Positions 1-8,542 of a stretch of DNA of 35,798 nt are shown piece after piece. The position numbers and the translations under genes are program-made. How positions within the stretch are numbered: position 1 is the first letter of the stretch; the number at the start of each line of letters is the position of its first letter. The DNA comes from an uncultured Gammaproteobacteria bacterium (GTDB lineage Bacteria; Pseudomonadota; Gammaproteobacteria; Nitrosococcales; Methylophagaceae), in assembly GCA_937900515.1 (NCBI GenBank), contig CALCCU010000200.1, positions 1-35,798 on the forward strand, read 5' to 3'. The notes below the pieces were generated by a model, which saw nothing but the letters and a program-made list of their open reading frames with translations, was not told where the DNA came from and did no database searches.

Positions 1-1856
1 TCAATGAAGCTACTGCCTTCTGGGATAGCTCCACCTGTCGCTGGGTTTCCACCTAATACGTGGCCAACAAAATCCACTTGGTGAGTTTGCTGTTGCACAA
101 CCATGTTATTTAATGTCTCCACATCAGTAAGAAGATCTCTTCCTTGTAGGTTCCCCAATAAATTGTCAGCTTGTAAGGCATTATAAGCTGAGCCAACAAA
201 GTTCATCCGCGTGTCAGCCAGAACACCAACACTACTTGTGTCACCTATAAATTCTAATGCATTACCTGTTGTCAAGCCTCCACGACTATGAGAGTCAAGA
301 TGTAGTCCTGACTGACCATAGTCAAAACTAAGATAGAGTTCTTGGCCTGAACGACCTAATGCAAGGCCTAGTTCATTACGTAAAACCCAACCACGTTCGC
401 TACTCAGGGTGAGTTCACCATCAAAACCGCGAACGGTATAACGTCCACCAATTGAGAAGCGATCTTGTACTATAAGAGGAGTTTTATTCCATTGACCGCG
501 CCATGAGCCGTTATAACGCAACCGTTGTTCTCCTAGGGTAAAAGGCTGACTAAGACTTAACGCTAACGTGATAATTTCAGGTCTAGCAGTACCTTCGTCG
601 AAGGTTTCTTCTGGTGCGGGCATAGCACTAAACAGTCCGGTGCCACGACGATAAGCAAGATCGGCATCAAGCGTCGCGCTACCGATAAATTCCTTGTGGA
701 TAAGATTAGCCTGCCATCCAGCCATTCGGCGCTGTTGCACTTCAATCTCAGTATCGTCGATATAGTTGTGTGAGGTATTGAGATAAGCCTGCAATGAGAG
801 CGAGGTTTTACGCACGGCATCACGATACATTAACCGATAAATCTTCAGTTCAGAACGGCTACTTTCACCGCTGTAATTAAAGGTCTGGTTCGCTCCTGCA
901 ACAGATTGATGGTAATTGTTCTTCCTAGTGGTTGCACTGACTAACCAATAATCAAATGGTAATGAGTAATGTAAGGTGTGGCCGCGGGTGCCGTGTTGGT
1001 CACTATCACTCGTCAAGTCATGGTTCACACTAAAGTAAAACAGGTCGTTTAATGTGAGTAGATTATCACCAGAAAGTGTGGCAGTACCTTGTCGCTTGCC
1101 TGTTGCACGTGAGCCGCCATCATCGACAGATAAGGTGATACGAAAAGGTAAAGCCTGTTGATAACGAATAACAATGTCACTATCACCCGGCTTCGCATTA
1201 GTGGCAACAGCTGGTTCTATCTGAATATCCGCTTCTGCAGTAGGCACGCGTTTAAAATTTTCAAGCGCTTGCTCTATATCTCGTAGATTAAGTAGATCTC
1301 CTTCATTTGCTGGTAATGCACTCCAATATCTACCTCGACGATCGCTAGTGCCTTTAGCAAAACGAATGGTATGGATCCGTCCTGGAATAACGGTAAAGAC
1401 AAGTTGTCCTGCATTAAGATCTTGTGGTGAGAGCAAAACACGCGTAGTTAAAAAACCTTTAGCAATAATGGCATTTTGTATGCGCGTCAGTGCGATATTA
1501 ATCCCTTGAATGCCAAGGCAGCGACCGATGGCTAGATCATCACCCATTATCACATCAGCAAGGGAAAAATTGAATGTTTCTGCGTCTTCACCCGCTAAGG
1601 TAATTTGGTTTACTTCAAAACAAGGAGACTCTCCTTCAGGGAGTAGCCTAGAAAGTGTCGCTCCTGTTTCTCGAGGTAACCTGACATCAGTAGAGGGTTC
1701 ATGTGTTTCGCGTAATGAGCGTTCGCGTTCTTGCTGTTGAATGCTCTGCTGCTGAATGATCTGCTGTTGCTGTTCAATCGTCGTTTGGGCGCTAAGTTCT
1801 GCAATCGGCGCCATAACCAATAATGGCAGGCACCAAAAAATATGCTTAAAATCCAT
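1..1856 (-). CDS. TpsB-type two-partner secretion transporter fused in frame to a TpsA-like C-terminal segment (partial, runs off left edge)
   Basis: The reading frame is open from ATG at 1856 to the window edge (618 codons, no stop). Residues 1-23 look like a signal peptide, followed by a Gln-rich linker (about 25-50) and POTRA-like sequence (about 80-230). From about 235 to 510 it reads as an ShlB/FhaC-type outer-membrane barrel, with the family's VRGF motif near residues 471-474 and the following FDYG strand motif near 503-507. TpsB proteins export large TpsA adhesins or toxins across the outer membrane. After FDYGQSG the sequence stops resembling a barrel. From about residue 520 it reads SHSRGG, GNALE, SAYNALQADNLL and GGNPATGGAIPEGSS, which I recall as typical of the C-terminal region of filamentous-haemagglutinin-like TpsA proteins. 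The last barrel strands and the C-terminal outer-membrane signal are therefore missing. Likely a deletion fusion and non-functional as a transporter. TpsB identity is firm; the TpsA match is from memory. Confidence 0.82.
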   Translation of the reverse strand, partial: MDFKHIFWCLPLLVMAPIAELSAQTTIEQQQQIIQQQSIQQQERERSLRETHEPSTDVRLPRETGATLSRLLPEGESPCFEVNQITLAGEDAETFNFSLADVIMGDDLAIGRCLGIQGINIALTRIQNAIIAKGFLTTRVLLSPQDLNAGQLVFTVIPGRIHTIRFAKGTSDRRGRYWSALPANEGDLLNLRDIEQALENFKRVPTAEADIQIEPAVATNAKPGDSDIVIRYQQALPFRITLSVDDGGSRATGKRQGTATLSGDNLLTLNDLFYFSVNHDLTSDSDQHGTRGHTLHYSLPFDYWLVSATTRKNNYHQSVAGANQTFNYSGESSRSELKIYRLMYRDAVRKTSLSLQAYLNTSHNYIDDTEIEVQQRRMAGWQANLIHKEFIGSATLDADLAYRRGTGLFSAMPAPEETFDEGTARPEIITLALSLSQPFTLGEQRLRYNGSWRGQWNKTPLIVQDRFSIGGRYTVRGFDGELTLSSERGWVLRNELGLALGRSGQELYLSFDYGQSGLHLDSHSRGGLTTGNALEFIGDTSSVGVLADTRMNFVGSAYNALQADNLLGNLQGRDLLTDVETLNNMVVQQQTHQVDFVGHVLGGNPATGGAIPEGSSFI

Positions 1857-2208
1857 TTATACAACCGTTCCATTAAATTCAATCCATTGATGTCAGCATC
1901 ATGCTGCACAGTAATAGTCTAATGTATTGTAGTGATGATGAAGTAATTCTTCATCTGTACTATGGAACGGGTATCTCAAATATAGAAAAAATTAATTTTA
2001 TGAAGACTAAAATACTTAAGTTTAATAAAGCCCCCATGTTCCTAATAAAAAAAATGGTTTTCCATTTAAAATAACGGTACACGTTTTCCTCAATTAATGA
2101 TTACAGTGCGGTGAATACCGATATTAATCGCCGCATAAAAAGCGACAAATATTCTTGTGTTTGCAGTAAATAACCATTATTATCGCCGTATAATTTGCGG
2201 TGATTAAT
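1857..2208. other. Divergent intergenic region between the TpsB-like gene and fic
   Basis: This 352-base stretch has no convincing gene. On the TpsB side it holds two perfect dyads: CAGCAT-C-ATGCTG at 1894-1906 and GATGAAG-N5-CTTCATC at 1937-1955. Both would lie in the leader of the minus-strand gene. On the fic side it holds two 29-bp operator-like repeats, described separately. The middle part (about 1970-2095) is A/T-rich with nothing recognisable. Confidence 0.6.
2108..2208 (+). promoter_or_regulatory. Repeated operator-like elements over the fic promoter
   Basis: Two 29-bp related elements start 55 bp apart, at 2125-2153 and 2180-2208, and agree at 19 of 29 positions. Each begins TNATCGCCGNATAA and has GCG in its right half. 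The second is an imperfect dyad (ATCGCCG ... GCGGTGAT). A further arm, GCGGTGAATA at 2108-2117, pairs with TATTAATCGCCGC at 2122-2134. A perfect -10 box TATAAT sits at 2189-2194 inside the second element, with no good -35. Transcription would then begin about 7-9 bases before the ATG at 2209. Overlap of the -10 with the dyad suggests repression, perhaps by the C-terminal helix-turn-helix of Fic itself; that is inference. Confidence 0.5.
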
Positions 2209-3327
2209 ATGTGGATATACGAATACAAAGACTGGCCTAATTTTTCTTGGAATACAGAAAAGCTAGCTTCTAAACTCGCAGGTATACGTTATCAACAAGG
2301 GCGCTTGTTGGGCCGAATGGAAGGACTTGGCTTTGAACTAAGGAGAGAAGCCAGCCTGAGAACATTAACCAATGATGTTGTAAAATCTTCAGCGATTGAA
2401 GGACATGGCCTTAATCCCGAAGAAGTTCGCTCTTCTATTGCCCGTCACCTAGGCATGGATATCGCTGGACTTATTCCTGCTAGCCGTGATGTAGACGGCA
2501 TCGTTGAAATGATGCTGGATGCGACTCAGCACTTTTCCAAACCGTTAACAAAAGAGCGTCTATTTAATTGGCACGCAGCACTTTTTCCGACAGGACGAAG
2601 TGGAATGCATCGTATTACCGTGGCAGATTGGCGTGCCATTGAAAAAGATCCTATGCAAGTCGTTTCTGGTCCTATAGGCCGAGAAAAAATCCATTTCCTT
2701 GCACCAAGTGCAGATAAGCTTGAATCTGAAATGACGGCTTTTCTTAACTGGTTTGAAAGCAAAGCCGATATTGATCCTGTTATTAGAGCAGGTATTGCTC
2801 ATCTTTGGTTTGTCACAATTCACCCTTTTGAAGATGGCAATGGCCGAATTGCCAGAGCGATTGGAGATATGGCTTTAGCGCGAGCTGATGGTATGCCTGA
2901 ACGCTTTTATAGTCTGTCCAATCAAATTGAGAGTGAACGAAAAAACTACTATGATCAGCTTGAAAGCCAGCAACATGCTTCGCCAGAAATCACAGAATGG
3001 TTAACATGGTTTTTAGATCGTCTTGGGCACGCCATTACCAATGCTGAAGCGCTATTAAGTAGTGTGTTATTCAAGGCTCGTTTGTGGGAGAAGATCAACA
3101 AGACTCCAGTTCATGAGCGGCAACGTATCATTATTAATCGCATGCTTGAGGATAATTTTGTTGGGCATATGAATACCTCGAAATATGCCAAACTTGCAAA
3201 ATGTTCGAATGATACGGCTCTGCGTGATATTCAAGCGCTTGTGCAAAGAGGTCTATTTTTACAAAACTCAGGCAGTGGGCGAAGTACGAGTTATCGCTTG
3301 ATTGATAAATTTGATGATGAGCGATAA
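2209..3327 (+). CDS. fic: Fic family protein with DUF4172 N-terminal domain
   Basis: Fic proteins usually transfer AMP from ATP to hydroxyl side chains of target proteins. Numbering from the GTG at 2200, the DUF4172-type N-terminal region begins WIYEYKDWPNF. An inhibitory-helix motif of the [ST]xxxE[GN] kind (S63-S-A-I-E67-G68) precedes the Fic core, so this is a class II, self-inhibited enzyme. The catalytic loop HPFEDGNGRIAR spans residues 208-219, and every signature residue is present. The last 70-80 residues look like a winged helix-turn-helix (NTSKYAKLAKCSNDTALRDI), common in this subfamily. I chose ATG 2209, which gives the usual MWIYEYKDW start, over the in-frame GTG 2200; neither has a clear ribosome binding site. 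It stands alone without a FicA/Phd-type antitoxin gene, as expected when the inhibitory helix is internal. Its target cannot be told from sequence. Confidence 0.93.
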   Translation: MWIYEYKDWPNFSWNTEKLASKLAGIRYQQGRLLGRMEGLGFELRREASLRTLTNDVVKSSAIEGHGLNPEEVRSSIARHLGMDIAGLIPASRDVDGIVEMMLDATQHFSKPLTKERLFNWHAALFPTGRSGMHRITVADWRAIEKDPMQVVSGPIGREKIHFLAPSADKLESEMTAFLNWFESKADIDPVIRAGIAHLWFVTIHPFEDGNGRIARAIGDMALARADGMPERFYSLSNQIESERKNYYDQLESQQHASPEITEWLTWFLDRLGHAITNAEALLSSVLFKARLWEKINKTPVHERQRIIINRMLEDNFVGHMNTSKYAKLAKCSNDTALRDIQALVQRGLFLQNSGSGRSTSYRLIDKFDDER

Positions 3328-3402
3328 GAAATAACGCTATTCTTTAGTACTAAAACTGGGGGCTTATCAATAATTAGAGTTGCAGGAAACCGTTTAGAAA
3401 AC

Positions 3403-3558
3403 TCAGGCCTTAGAAGAACCTGCTCCAACATCTAACAATGATGAGCCTGCTAGAAAGCTGCTTTGGTAATAGCTTGTAATCTTTGATTGAACCGACTCGT
3501 AGCGTGCAAAAATAACACCTGCATTCGTGCTATAGAAGTCTGCAGTTTGTTTGTCCAT
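3403..3558 (-). pseudogene. Truncated class I SAM-dependent methyltransferase remnant
   Basis: A 51-codon minus-strand frame starts at ATG 3558 and ends at TGA 3403-3405. It reads MDKQTADFYSTNAG at the start and SSLLDVGAGSSKA at the end. LLDVGAGS is motif I, the SAM-binding loop of class I methyltransferases. In intact relatives it is followed by some 150 residues that are missing here. The frame ends immediately after motif I and no continuation is visible in any frame downstream. I read it as the 5' remnant of a methyltransferase gene cut by a deletion, consistent with its place in the accessory segment. A real short peptide is possible but less likely. Confidence 0.6.
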
Positions 3559-3831
3559 AAGAAGTCATCTTGAGAGTTAAAGTACCAAATGACATTAAAA
3601 CATGAAATTTAATGATATGTTCGGGATTAACTCATACGAAGGTGTTGACTTTATTCTCGTGTTCAAATTCGACTAGACAAACCATCGAATATCTTAAGAT
3701 TGTGTCATTTAGGCTTGAACTCAAAAGCCATTATTTATAAAACATGGATTTTTATATTTGTCACAAGATTGGCACAGATTTGTCACAAGGTAAATTGAGC
3801 AGCTTGTGACGATTAAGGCTAAAACTTAAAA
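3559..3831. other. Non-coding stretch between methyltransferase remnant and tRNA-Arg
   Basis: No gene of convincing length is seen in these 273 bases. The part nearest the tRNA contains the 11-bp repeat cluster described separately. The rest is A/T-rich and featureless to my reading. Confidence 0.5.
3757..3810. repeat. 11-bp tandem/inverted repeat cluster beside the tRNA 3' end
   Basis: TTTGTCACAAG occurs exactly at 3757-3767 and again at 3779-3789, a 22-bp period. The 11 bases between them (ATTGGCACAGA) are a degenerate copy with 7 of 11 matches, so the array has three 11-bp units in tandem. An inverted partial copy, CTTGTGAC, lies at 3803-3810. The array is 22-75 bases outside the encoded CCA of tRNA-Arg. 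Such spaced short repeats next to a tRNA 3' end can be recombinase arm sites or excisionase sites of an integrated element; here that role is inference. Confidence 0.55.
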
Positions 3832-3908
3832 TGGCGCGCCTGACAGGAATCGAACCTGTGACCCCCAGTTTCGGAAACTGGTACTCTATCCAACTGAGCT
3901 ACAGGCGC
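3832..3908 (-). tRNA. tRNA-Arg, anticodon CCG
   Basis: The minus strand folds as a full cloverleaf of 77 bases. The acceptor stem GCGCCTG pairs with CAGGCGC, followed by discriminator G and an encoded CCA (3834-3832). The anticodon stem CCAGT/ACTGG encloses loop TTCCGAA, giving anticodon CCG, which reads CGG arginine codons. The T arm has the usual GGTTCGATTCC. The 3' end faces the accessory region at 1-3831. Confidence 0.97.
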
Positions 3909-4100
3909 TTTGAGAGTATTTAAGTTGATTGCTGTTTTTCCACTTTACAAAAGTAGGTTAACAACATTATGAATTAAATTGATTTAACCAAGACGTTAAC
4001 TTGGTTTAGTTAACAATCTCCGGCGTTGGATTATACGTATTTTGACTCTGTTCTACTAGCAGACAATACTTTAATCTGAGAGGGATGCTAACTTATAAGC

Positions 4101-4549
4101 TTAACTGTTAACTAATTTTAATTTTCGAGGTGAGTTCATCGCCAGCTCTGTTGAAAAATAATCTAACATTTCAGCAACAAGCTTACGAGGTAGCCAAGCT
4201 TCGCCATCATGAATAACTCGTATTGCTTTAGCTAACATTGGACGCTGTTCACGGCTTATATAACCTCGTACTTTAAAGCCAGAGCTTTGTAGCATTTGGA
4301 AATCAGGCGCACCTTCAATTAATACTATTATTTGCGCTTCAGGACATCTTAACGAACAGACATAACTCAATATATCAACGTCAATTTGTTCATCATCTCC
4401 GTCAACCACAATAATACTGGGTCTATGCATGGCGATATGGCTAATAATAGTATCAAAATCAACTGTCTGCACTAAGCTAACGTGCATATCAGTCTCATAT
4501 GCAAGCACTGTTGAGGATATATCCTCTTCCCCAACAATCACTACGTCAA

Positions 4550-4553: not shown

Positions 4554-6084
<1,531 letters not shown>

Positions 6085-6088
6085 TTAT

Positions 6089-8542
6089 TTAAAAAAGCAG
6101 TGTTAATGTTGGTTTTATCTGTAGCATTTGCGCTTTAAATCGTTGCTGAATTTCTTGTAACTCATCCGCAGAATCAGCTTCGAAACGTAAGGTCAATCCA
6201 GGTACTGTATTCGAAGCTCTAACTAAACCCCAACCATTCGGATATTCGGCTCGAACACCATCTAAGATATTAAGTTCCGCTCCCTCAAACTGACCTTCGC
6301 CAGCGAGCTGTCTCATAAATGTTGCACTTTCACCTTCTGCCATACTCACCAGAATTTCTGGAGTACTTTCTCTCGATGGTAACGCTTTAAAGATGTCTGT
6401 CGCATTTCGTGACATAGCATCATTAGCCAAGATTTCTAATAATCGAGCACTCGCATATAACGCATCATCAAAGCCGTACCAGCGCTCCTTAATGAAGATG
6501 TGACCGCTAAATTCACCTGCTAGCACTGCGTGAGACTCTTTCATTCTATGCTTAATTAGAGAGTGTCCTGAGCGACTCATCAATGGCTTACCTCCAGACC
6601 TAGTGATAACCTCTGCTAGCAAGCTTGTACTTTTGACATCAAAAATAACAGAAGCGCCAGGATCCCGGGATAGAATATCTTGGGCAAGCAACATTAATAC
6701 GCGATCGGGGTAAATAATATTGCCAGAACCATCCACTACACCTAATCTGTCACCATCACCATCAAATGCTAACCCTAGCTCAGCGCCACTCTCTTGAACA
6801 GCTTCAGATAAGTCTTTAAGGTTTTCTGGCCGGCTGGGGTCTGGATGGTGGTTGGGGAATTTACCATCAACTTCGCAGAACAGTTCAACTACTTCACAAC
6901 CTATTGCTTTAAATAAGGCAGGAGCAATTGCTCCTGTAATTCCATTGCCACAGTCAATCACTATCTTAATAGGTCGTGAAACAGTTAAGTCACCAACAAC
7001 ACGACTAACATAATCATAGTTGATACTTTCTTGTCTTAAAGAACCGTTGCCCGTTCTCAGCTCATTGTGTTGGACTCTTTGATGTAGCTTCATCAACTCA
7101 TCTTGAGTTAATGGCTGGCCAGCTAGCACTACTTTCAAACCATTATAGTCAGGAGGGTTATGACTACCAGTAAGCATCACACCAGACTTAGTATTCAAAT
7201 GTTCACACGCAAAATACATAACAGGAGTTGGTACTTCTCCCACATCTATCACATCGCAACCACTCGCAGTCAGCCCTTCAATCAAGGCATGACTTAAACC
7301 TGCGCTAGAGAGTCTAGCATCACGTCCTACGACAATTTCTTTAACCCCTTGAACCGCCGCCTCAGATCCTATTGCCTGCCCAATCGCTCTAATGACATCT
7401 TCATTTATATTTTGACCAACAACCCCTCGAATATCATTCACTCGAAAAATAGTGGGATCAATATCAACAACTTCACTTACTGTTTCGGCCTGAGTAGGTA
7501 ATCGAACATTATTTTCAACTTCTTCGATTTTCTTGCCAATACTTTCGGCTGTAGCACCTTTTTTAGCCGTATTGTGATAATTCTCACGACCAAGCGCTAG
7601 AATATCGACCACGAGTAAGTTAAAAGGTTTAAGCGTTACATGGTAACGAGGCTTCAAGCCGCCTGACTTAAGATCCGCTAACTGCGACTTAATGATAGAC
7701 ACATCGCGCTTAACCAATAAAGCCTTCATAACTTCAAGAAGTAGCCACATTAAAATCATAATGGCTAGTACGCCACTTAAGATAAACCACTGAGGAGAGT
7801 AACTTTGAGGTTGTTCAGGCCAATAAGCTAAACGCCAGTATGTATTAGGCAGCAACTTTTCAATCAACGCTTGCCCTTGTTTATGGCTGTCACTACCCTG
7901 ATTTGCTAAAACAGTGACATTCTTAGAACCTTGTTGTAATTCAATATAACCAGCTAAGTTAGCACTAGGATAAAGGATAGTCTGAATCACATCGGCACTA
8001 AGTGTCACTACCAGCACACCAACAACGCGCCCCGATTTGTTCTCTATACTTTGCGCCAACAATACATGAGCATCTGAGCTAGCAGGTTTTATAACACTTA
8101 ATTTAGCGTTACCTTCTTTTTTTGCCTGCCTCAAACTATTTAACGTAGCAAATGTAATAGGCATACAGCCAGAAGATGAAACATCATCAACATCGGCACT
8201 AATTAGACACACATTTTCTGCATGAGGGAAATAAGATAATAAATCTTGTTGTAATAACTCTATTAAAGAACTGTCATTGAACGTCAATGCATCCACTAAT
8301 TGCTTAGAATTAGCTATCGCACCCATTTGCTCTTTAATATTGTCAATTCGAGCAAGTGTGTAATTTTCAATATTAGTGGCGATTTGCTTTTGGTGGTTTA
8401 GTTGAATAGCTTCAGTCTCTTGTGAAGAAATCTGCTGTTGCCACAAAAAACCAGTTGCTACAAAAAAGCAGCTCACACCAATAGAAAGTAGTGAAATACC
8501 CTTATTGCCTATTATTAATATAAGCTTAGCTAATCCATCCAT
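6089..8542 (-). CDS. algC: Phosphomannomutase/phosphoglucomutase, long form with membrane-anchored N-terminal domain
   Basis: AlgC-type enzymes interconvert 1- and 6-phosphates of mannose and glucose, feeding lipopolysaccharide and exopolysaccharide synthesis. The catalytic part covers about residues 355-817: phosphoserine loop TGSHNPP (S460), metal loop DGDGDR (594-599), sugar loop GEFSGH (676-681) and phosphate-binding RASNTVPG (775-782). The first 350 residues are an addition: membrane segment at about 11-34, a 215-residue periplasmic-looking region, a second membrane segment at about 252-277, then a Lys-rich linker. Similar long forms are annotated for Pseudomonas AlgC, and the crystallised enzyme is the short form. 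The extracytoplasmic part resembles a Cache-like sensor in layout, but I cannot confirm a ligand site. It sits between dut and argB, the conserved order. Confidence 0.92.
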   Translation of the reverse strand: MDGLAKLILIIGNKGISLLSIGVSCFFVATGFLWQQQISSQETEAIQLNHQKQIATNIENYTLARIDNIKEQMGAIANSKQLVDALTFNDSSLIELLQQDLLSYFPHAENVCLISADVDDVSSSGCMPITFATLNSLRQAKKEGNAKLSVIKPASSDAHVLLAQSIENKSGRVVGVLVVTLSADVIQTILYPSANLAGYIELQQGSKNVTVLANQGSDSHKQGQALIEKLLPNTYWRLAYWPEQPQSYSPQWFILSGVLAIMILMWLLLEVMKALLVKRDVSIIKSQLADLKSGGLKPRYHVTLKPFNLLVVDILALGRENYHNTAKKGATAESIGKKIEEVENNVRLPTQAETVSEVVDIDPTIFRVNDIRGVVGQNINEDVIRAIGQAIGSEAAVQGVKEIVVGRDARLSSAGLSHALIEGLTASGCDVIDVGEVPTPVMYFACEHLNTKSGVMLTGSHNPPDYNGLKVVLAGQPLTQDELMKLHQRVQHNELRTGNGSLRQESINYDYVSRVVGDLTVSRPIKIVIDCGNGITGAIAPALFKAIGCEVVELFCEVDGKFPNHHPDPSRPENLKDLSEAVQESGAELGLAFDGDGDRLGVVDGSGNIIYPDRVLMLLAQDILSRDPGASVIFDVKSTSLLAEVITRSGGKPLMSRSGHSLIKHRMKESHAVLAGEFSGHIFIKERWYGFDDALYASARLLEILANDAMSRNATDIFKALPSRESTPEILVSMAEGESATFMRQLAGEGQFEGAELNILDGVRAEYPNGWGLVRASNTVPGLTLRFEADSADELQEIQQRFKAQMLQIKPTLTLLF

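What the first reader, a model, noticed from the sequence alone, without database searches (positions are those of the whole stretch)
1..420. TpsB transporter reads in frame into a TpsA-like exoprotein tail
The minus-strand frame shows signal peptide, POTRA-like part and barrel up to the VRGF and FDYG motifs. It then switches near residues 510-520 (about 300-325) to SHSRGG...SAYNALQADNLL...GGNPATGGAIPEGSS, which I recognise as C-terminal filamentous-haemagglutinin-like sequence. The last barrel strands are missing. An in-frame deletion between a tandem tpsB-tpsA pair would give exactly this, and the result would be an unfoldable barrel. An alternative is a real fused architecture in which the exoprotein tail rides on its own transporter. 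SHSRG also resembles a lipase-like nucleophile elbow.
Basis: partly seen in the sequence, partly recalled or inferred. Interest (0 to 1): 0.7.

Follow-up and report, generated by a model that had tools for sequence, protein, structure and literature searches.

The report
Secretion gene fused to toxin tail
At the very edge of a sequence fragment from a bacterium related to Methylophaga, the gene for a toxin exporter runs straight into the last part of a toxin gene of the kind it normally exports, most likely because the DNA between them was lost, so this is a broken weapon system rather than a new type of protein.

Summary
Window 3-1856(-) is one 618-codon frame, open at the contig end. Residues 1-512 are a CdiB-type TpsB transporter; from Tyr513 (about 307-320) the sequence is the C-terminal domain of a CdiA-type TpsA. 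In Methylophaga and other Proteobacteria this domain ends a TpsA, often with a complete TpsB upstream. None of 40 related loci has both in one frame. The join falls on a shared Tyr-Gly motif. It removes TpsB's last ~62 residues (strands 14-16, by model count) and the TpsA body, and cuts the TpsA domain, a cutinase/lipase-like hydrolase, just before its serine strand. Both parent domains are broken, so a working fusion is very unlikely. The TpsA body and the expected immunity lipoprotein were not found in the assembly. A real microhomology deletion of several kb fits best. Because the contig ends 306 bases past the join and no reads are available, an assembly or library chimera cannot be excluded. 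By-product: a recurrent pairing of this hydrolase domain with a Cys-rich lipoprotein, without Pfam or NCBIfam models.

The parts
3..1856 (-). Fused open frame P0001, 618 residues, ATG at 1856, no stop before the contig end
   Evidence: window is the whole contig
321..1856 (-). CdiB/TpsB-type transporter part, residues 1-512 (N-terminal region, two POTRA domains, barrel strands 1-13)
   Evidence: Pfam POTRA_2, POTRA_3, ShlB; CdiB 6wil match; alignment with 19 relatives' ends; model strand count
1212..1619 (-). Two POTRA domains (residues 80-215)
   Evidence: Pfam POTRA_2 8e-15 and POTRA_3 3e-19
423..434 (-). VRGF motif of loop 6, residues 475-478
   Evidence: V475, R476, G477, F478 invariant in the 16 rows of alignment A4, the window's own included
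307..320 (-). Join: TATGGTCAGTCAGG, from Y513 on; commonest TpsB side D-Y-G-E-V (D-Y-G-Q-V in the Variovorax plasmid), TpsA side Y-G-Q-S-G-L in the closest relatives
3..320 (-). C-terminal part of a CdiA-type TpsA hydrolase domain, residues 513-618 (106 of about 159 residues from this point, by L041)
276..290 (-). Nucleophile elbow H523-S524-R525-G526-G527
   Evidence: Ser invariant in 23 of 23 aligned domains of relatives; strand 157-162 then helix 164-177 in the model
72..74 (-). Putative catalytic Asp595; the partner His would lie past the contig end
   Evidence: invariant D234 and H272 in alignment A3; D83 of the tail in A2

Best explanation
The frame is the scar of a deletion inside a contact-dependent-inhibition (CDI) type two-partner locus. 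An ancestral cdiB-cdiA pair lost everything between the Tyr-Gly codons near the end of cdiB (strand 13 of the barrel) and the Tyr-Gly codons in the C-terminal hydrolase domain of cdiA, several kb in all (about 5.5 kb if spaced as in Methylophaga), through a direct repeat of about 5-9 bases. By chance the frame was kept. The product has 13 of 16 barrel strands, lacks the C-terminal strand that closes the barrel, and carries part of a hydrolase. It should neither insert as a transporter nor act as a toxin: the cell is disarmed at this locus. Shown: the two parentages, the position of the join, the missing pieces. Inferred: that the deletion exists in the organism, its size, its mechanism and the loss of function.
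For: Both halves align to separate genes in relatives and the switch is sharp. Of 20 locus pairs, 15 could be placed at residue 512: 61-62 TpsB residues follow in 14 and 70 in one, and 2.1-8.6 kb separate the two motif positions. The shared motif is seen in relatives' DNA. The TpsA body is not found in the assembly, while the same query finds TpsA in 6 of 6 comparison genomes, chosen because they have one, two of them of the same genus. A TpsB query has one match only, this frame. The lipoprotein family expected behind cdiA has no match better than E 0.13, against 9e-56, 8e-18 and 1e-6 in three Methylophaga genomes, the first of which supplied a row of the query alignment. The contig end has no second copy in the assembly. 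Joining a gene to what looks like its own partner, in order, orientation and frame, is not what a random chimera gives; and an assembler would normally follow the intact path if most molecules had it (reasoning, not tested).
Against: The join lies 306 bases from the contig end, where false joins are hardest to notice, and everything further is missing. No reads, coverage or second strain were available. The absence of the TpsA body from a 289-contig draft is also what an unassembled or unbinned gene would give. Neither half shows decay, so the event must be recent if real. That the tail is from the cognate cdiA is inferred from gene order in relatives.
Confidence: 0.6

Rival explanations
1. 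The join is an artefact: a chimeric library molecule, or a local extension or overlap merge at a contig end, stitched the cdiB end to the cdiA tail through the short shared motif, and the organism has an intact locus that was not assembled or binned.
For: 306 bases from join to contig end; draft of 289 contigs; both halves undecayed; the gene that should lie between is large and not found.
Against: The estimated shared stretch (5-9 bases) is shorter than a usual assembly k-mer (recalled). Random chimeras would rarely join partner genes in order, orientation and frame. The contig end has no second copy in the assembly.
Confidence: 0.34
2. A real, working fused architecture: the transporter carries a toxin tail at its C-terminus and displays or releases it.
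For: The frame is open and both parts keep their conserved residues. Type Vd proteins show that a passenger can share a chain with a TpsB-like barrel (PMC5422565, passages read).
Against: Last barrel strands absent, and the hydrolase cut just before the serine strand, losing about 130 conserved residues upstream with four modelled strands. Mean model confidence of every 10-residue block from 541 on is under 50. 0 of 40 related loci have both in one frame. In type Vd the passenger is N-terminal (recalled).
Confidence: 0.03
3. The two halves do not come from one cognate pair: cdiB was joined to an orphan cdiA-CT cassette by recombination.
For: Extra copies of the domain exist: two tandem frames in L059, and short frames with the domain in L069 and L036.
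Against: cdiB upstream of cdiA in the same direction is the common order in relatives; GC of the two parts is alike, 45.2% and 44.0%.
Confidence: 0.03

Closest known systems
CdiB transporters of contact-dependent inhibition systems (A. baumannii CdiB, PDB 6wil; E. coli CdiB, 6wim)
   Same: POTRA1-POTRA2-barrel order, DxxG motif (D245-D246-G247-G248), VRGF motif, two conserved cysteines before the second POTRA (C79, C113 invariant in the 16 rows of A4)
   Different: Homology stops at residue 512-515; the last ~62 residues, barrel strands 14-16 by model count, are replaced by TpsA sequence
CdiA/TpsA proteins with a C-terminal alpha/beta-hydrolase domain (Methylophaga, Sedimenticola, Pseudomonas, Collimonas, Zoogloea and others)
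   Same: The tail is 40-55% identical to the domain in 34 of 39 loci and keeps the HSRG elbow and the Asp
   Different: The TPS signal, the filamentous body and the first ~130 conserved residues of the C-terminal region are absent
Type Vd patatin-like proteins (PlpD)
   Same: One chain combining a lipolytic domain with a TpsB-like barrel
   Different: Here the enzyme piece is C-terminal and incomplete, no patatin domain is found, and the barrel is truncated
Tox-ABhydrolase toxin domains of polymorphic toxins (Zhang et al. 2012, PMC3482391, section 33 read)
   Same: Alpha/beta-hydrolase toxin domains, two of three likened there to lipases
   Different: No sequence comparison with those families was made here, so the domain may be one of them; the section names no lipoprotein immunity partner

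Membership tests
TpsB/CdiB transporter | Two POTRA domains before the barrel | tested here: met
   Pfam POTRA_2 and POTRA_3 over their cut-offs
TpsB/CdiB transporter | DxxG on strand 1 and VRG(F/Y) motif (PMC7644211, passages read) | tested here: met
   D245, D246, G248 and V475-R476-G477-F478 invariant in the 16 rows of A4
TpsB/CdiB transporter | Complete 16-stranded barrel with C-terminal strand | tested here: not met
   Homology ends at residues 512-515; 61-62 residues missing in 14 of 15 placed comparisons; model gives 13 strands from TpsB sequence. A truncated derivative, not a working member
TpsA/CdiA exoprotein | N-terminal TPS secretion domain and filamentous repeats | tested here: not met
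   Absent from the frame; TpsA bodies not found in the assembly
CdiA C-terminal alpha/beta-hydrolase domain | Ser/Asp/His set in a hydrolase fold | tested here: inconclusive
   Ser and Asp present; the His position and the first half of the domain are missing from the window
CDI system | Adjacent immunity gene | tested here: inconclusive
   Would lie past the contig end; no relative of the lipoprotein family better than E 0.13 in the assembly
Type Vd (PlpD-like) | N-terminal patatin passenger fused to a complete barrel | tested here: not met
   No patatin domain in the Pfam scan; barrel incomplete

The most novel reading that the evidence does not exclude
The tail belongs to an undescribed class of interbacterial CDI toxin: a cutinase-like lipase at the end of CdiA that attacks envelope lipids, neutralised by a small Cys-rich lipoprotein encoded directly behind it. 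This genome would then hold a lineage freshly disarmed by one microhomology deletion, which would make loss of a contact weapon observable in a relative of Methylophaga.
Probability: 0.35. Interest if true: 0.5.

Novelty: new member of a known kind. Interest (0 to 1): 0.25.

Why it matters
As a fusion it matters little: it is a broken two-partner locus or an assembly join. It is a useful caution, since an automatic annotation would call it a TpsB transporter and could seed a false 'transporter-toxin fusion' family. Tracing the tail exposed a recurrent CdiA C-terminal hydrolase with an adjacent Cys-rich lipoprotein, neither of which had a significant Pfam or NCBIfam match in the members tested; that pairing is worth a bench test.

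Tried and rejected
Working fused architecture: rejected as above. A single divergent TpsB whose end simply differs: rejected, because the tail aligns to TpsA C-termini from its first residue while TpsB ends depart from it after D-Y-G (MAFFT still lays the tail beside them, without real similarity).

Assembly test by DNA: the 300 bases at the left end have no other copy in the assembly, only chance matches of up to about 22 bases; the right end likewise, up to 32 bases at 81%; repeats inside 1-1900 are short. This does not tell a real join from a false one.

Searches that gave nothing: plasmid DNA, tail in plasmids by tblastn, L012 domain in plasmids, first genome-contig scan with the tail alone, two viral-contig scans, PADLOC. 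In 369 genomes of the class only the own genome and one other (G281) had the tail. Phage records: 6 with a match, the 5 listed all over TpsB residues. The PF05860 search in the own genome rang nowhere, its 14 controls included, so it is not used as evidence. Model of the fused frame: strands drawn at 527-540, 556-567 and 614-617 come from tail residues that the alignment laid over TpsB end columns, at low confidence; I do not count them as barrel strands. Fold search of the hydrolase model: no Foldseek match at E 0.001 or below, best 1.5e-3 (cutinase); the VIA second look gives Z 8.4-10.2 with cutinases, 11.3 with Obc1 at rmsd 6.8, 9.3 with a hornet phospholipase A1 and 8.4 with a triacylglycerol lipase, where the tool warns that best Z of 7-8 is common for models without a clear match. 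Profile search of solved sequences gave weak hydrolase hits only (E 0.03-0.08). Pfam on 23 domains: best E 0.0041 (a glucoamylase family, one member), hydrolase families at 0.027-0.078. Literature searches; one search was for TpsB-TpsA fusions, 15 of 48 papers listed, none with such a title, and of these I read passages of two only (PMC5422565; PMC9086364).

Full report
What is there. The window is a complete contig, C200, of a 289-contig draft genome of 2.75 Mb. On the minus strand, 1856 down to 3 is a single open frame of 618 residues that runs off the contig end. Pfam assigns POTRA_2, POTRA_3 and ShlB to residues 80-522 and nothing to the tail taken alone. Solved CdiB of A. baumannii (6wil) matches residues 68-514 of the frame and then stops, at position 502 of a 560-residue chain. 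The best plasmid-borne TpsB (Eleftheria, 57.5% identity) also stops at 515.

Which lineage. A query with the tail over 63 genomes of the order found it in the own genome and in 8 others, all of one sister genus of the same family; 0 of 28 other genomes of the window's own genus have it. A TpsB relative was found in 2 of 24 genomes of the own genus, at 30-31% identity. Contig lengths identify the sister genus as Methylophaga (for example 825,287 bases, M. aminisulfidivorans). So the window comes from another genus of that family (inference); whether it is a metagenome-assembled genome is a guess from its contig number.

What the tail is. In seven Methylophaga loci the tail sits at residues about 1,759-1,862 of a 1,904-1,915-codon exoprotein frame; in five of them a TpsB frame of 577-609 codons lies directly before it, and in the other two the contig starts just before the exoprotein. 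Two more loci differ: L028 holds only a contig-edge end of the exoprotein, and in L036 a weaker relative of the tail is in a separate 396-codon frame. A second scan of genome contigs, using an alignment of the tail (A2), gave 40 loci, nearly all proteobacterial and some of them the same records as above. A tail frame was recovered in 39 of 40, not in L077. In 23 of the 40 a TpsB frame lies within the fetched stretch, complete and upstream on the same strand in 18, cut by the stretch in four, on the other strand in L047. In 0 of 40 do both lie in one frame; the window is the only case.

Where the join is. Aligned to tail frames from 23 of the 39 loci, the window's sequence begins at a conserved Y-G motif, and the conserved stretch that precedes it in relatives, about 130 residues from an F-(T/S)-D-E block, is missing. 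Aligned to 19 TpsB ends, it agrees up to D-Y-G and then departs; most relatives go on for about 62 residues to a normal C-terminal strand. The parents share Tyr-Gly: TpsB commonly has D-Y-G-E-V, TpsA Y-G-Q-S-G-L in the closest relatives. The join is therefore within window 307-320.

How much is gone. In 20 locus pairs compared, 15 could be placed at residue 512 and 5 could not (L038, L040, L049, L066, L068). In those 15, 61-62 TpsB residues follow in 14 and 70 in one, and 2,125-8,556 bases separate the two motif positions; the smallest value is a locus with a short exoprotein frame (L053). Three Methylophaga loci have 5,460-5,461. The spacing is a multiple of three in 4 of the 15, so the kept frame looks like chance.

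What it does to each domain. The hydrolase region of a Sedimenticola relative, folded with 22 others in the alignment, gives a confident model (mean pLDDT 87.4). The Y-G motif ends a helix, and the next strand (157-162) leads to the elbow serine. Strands at 38-41, 60-62, 79-83 and 107-110 lie before the cut. Ser163, Asp234 and His272 are invariant in 23 of 23. The fold is closest to cutinases and lipases, at moderate strength. In the fused frame the model has strands at 238-245, 256-264, 272-280, 289-301, 304-320, 325-345, 349-366, 376-391, 394-406, 427-441, 444-457, 488-500 and 505-517 from TpsB sequence (the last runs five residues past the cut). Counting as strand 1 the one with DxxG, as in the CdiB paper (PMC7644211, passages read), that is 13 of 16. 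The same paper reports that flexibility of the strand 1-strand 16 interface is needed for secretion. Both domains are thus cut through.

Is the rest elsewhere? Two different TpsA queries find only this tail in the own genome, while the second finds TpsA in 6 of 6 comparison genomes, chosen because they carry one. A TpsB query has this frame as its only match. The immunity-like lipoprotein family is not found (best E 0.13). All this fits a deletion, but also a gene that failed to assemble.

Real or artefact. For a real event: partner genes, right order, right orientation, frame kept, unique contig end, and a shared stretch shorter than usual assembly k-mers (recalled). Against: the contig ends 306 bases past the join and no reads are available. 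I put a real deletion at about 0.6 and an artefact at about a third.

By-product. Of the 39 tail loci I took 34 (without L064, L070, L072, L075, L076); 33 had a following frame. A strict lipobox pattern was present in 22 of 33, against 60 of 798 other short frames in the same loci. Three of the 22 picks (L039, L043, L044) start 341 bases downstream and look like a different lipoprotein. By eye, most of the 11 without the strict pattern also have a Cys after a hydrophobic stretch. Sixteen of the 21 listed align with ten invariant columns, five of them cysteines. Four members have no Pfam or NCBIfam match. The hydrolase domain has no significant Pfam match in 23 members and none of significance in NCBIfam for the two tested. 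Alpha/beta-hydrolase toxin domains as such are described (PMC3482391, section 33 read). Searches combining CdiA with lipase, phospholipase, cutinase and lipoprotein immunity showed no title on this pairing among the rows listed (15 of 28, 10 of 84, 5 of 5); from those listings only PMC3482391 was opened (passages and section 33). In a CDI toxin review (PMC9086364) the words lipase and hydrolase do not occur.

Noticed in passing
L041:1517-1903, L062:10488-10970, L074:8415-8798, L055:10441-11010 and others: A small Cys-rich lipoprotein-like gene follows the CdiA hydrolase domain in most loci looked at (strict lipobox in 22 of 33, three of these probably another gene; background 60 of 798). Candidate immunity family; four members tested had no Pfam or NCBIfam match.
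   Followed up: partly
L059 (Desulfocapsa MAG), frames 2-1192 and 1751-4267: Two tandem frames both end in the hydrolase domain, as expected of spare cdiA-CT cassettes.
   Followed up: no
   Followed up: no
window 2200-3327 (+): A Fic/DOC protein with DUF4172 is divergent from and directly beside the broken transporter gene.
   Followed up: partly
window 6089-8542 (-): Phosphomannomutase/phosphoglucomutase with a long N-terminal extension that weakly matches a dCache sensor domain (27.9 bits, below the cut-off of 45).
   Followed up: no
L034 and L035 (two contigs of one Methylophaga MAG): Two similar full-length TpsA frames (1,914 and 1,904 codons) on two short contigs of one draft, each contig starting about 200 bases before the frame; possibly two strains in one bin or two loci.
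   Followed up: no
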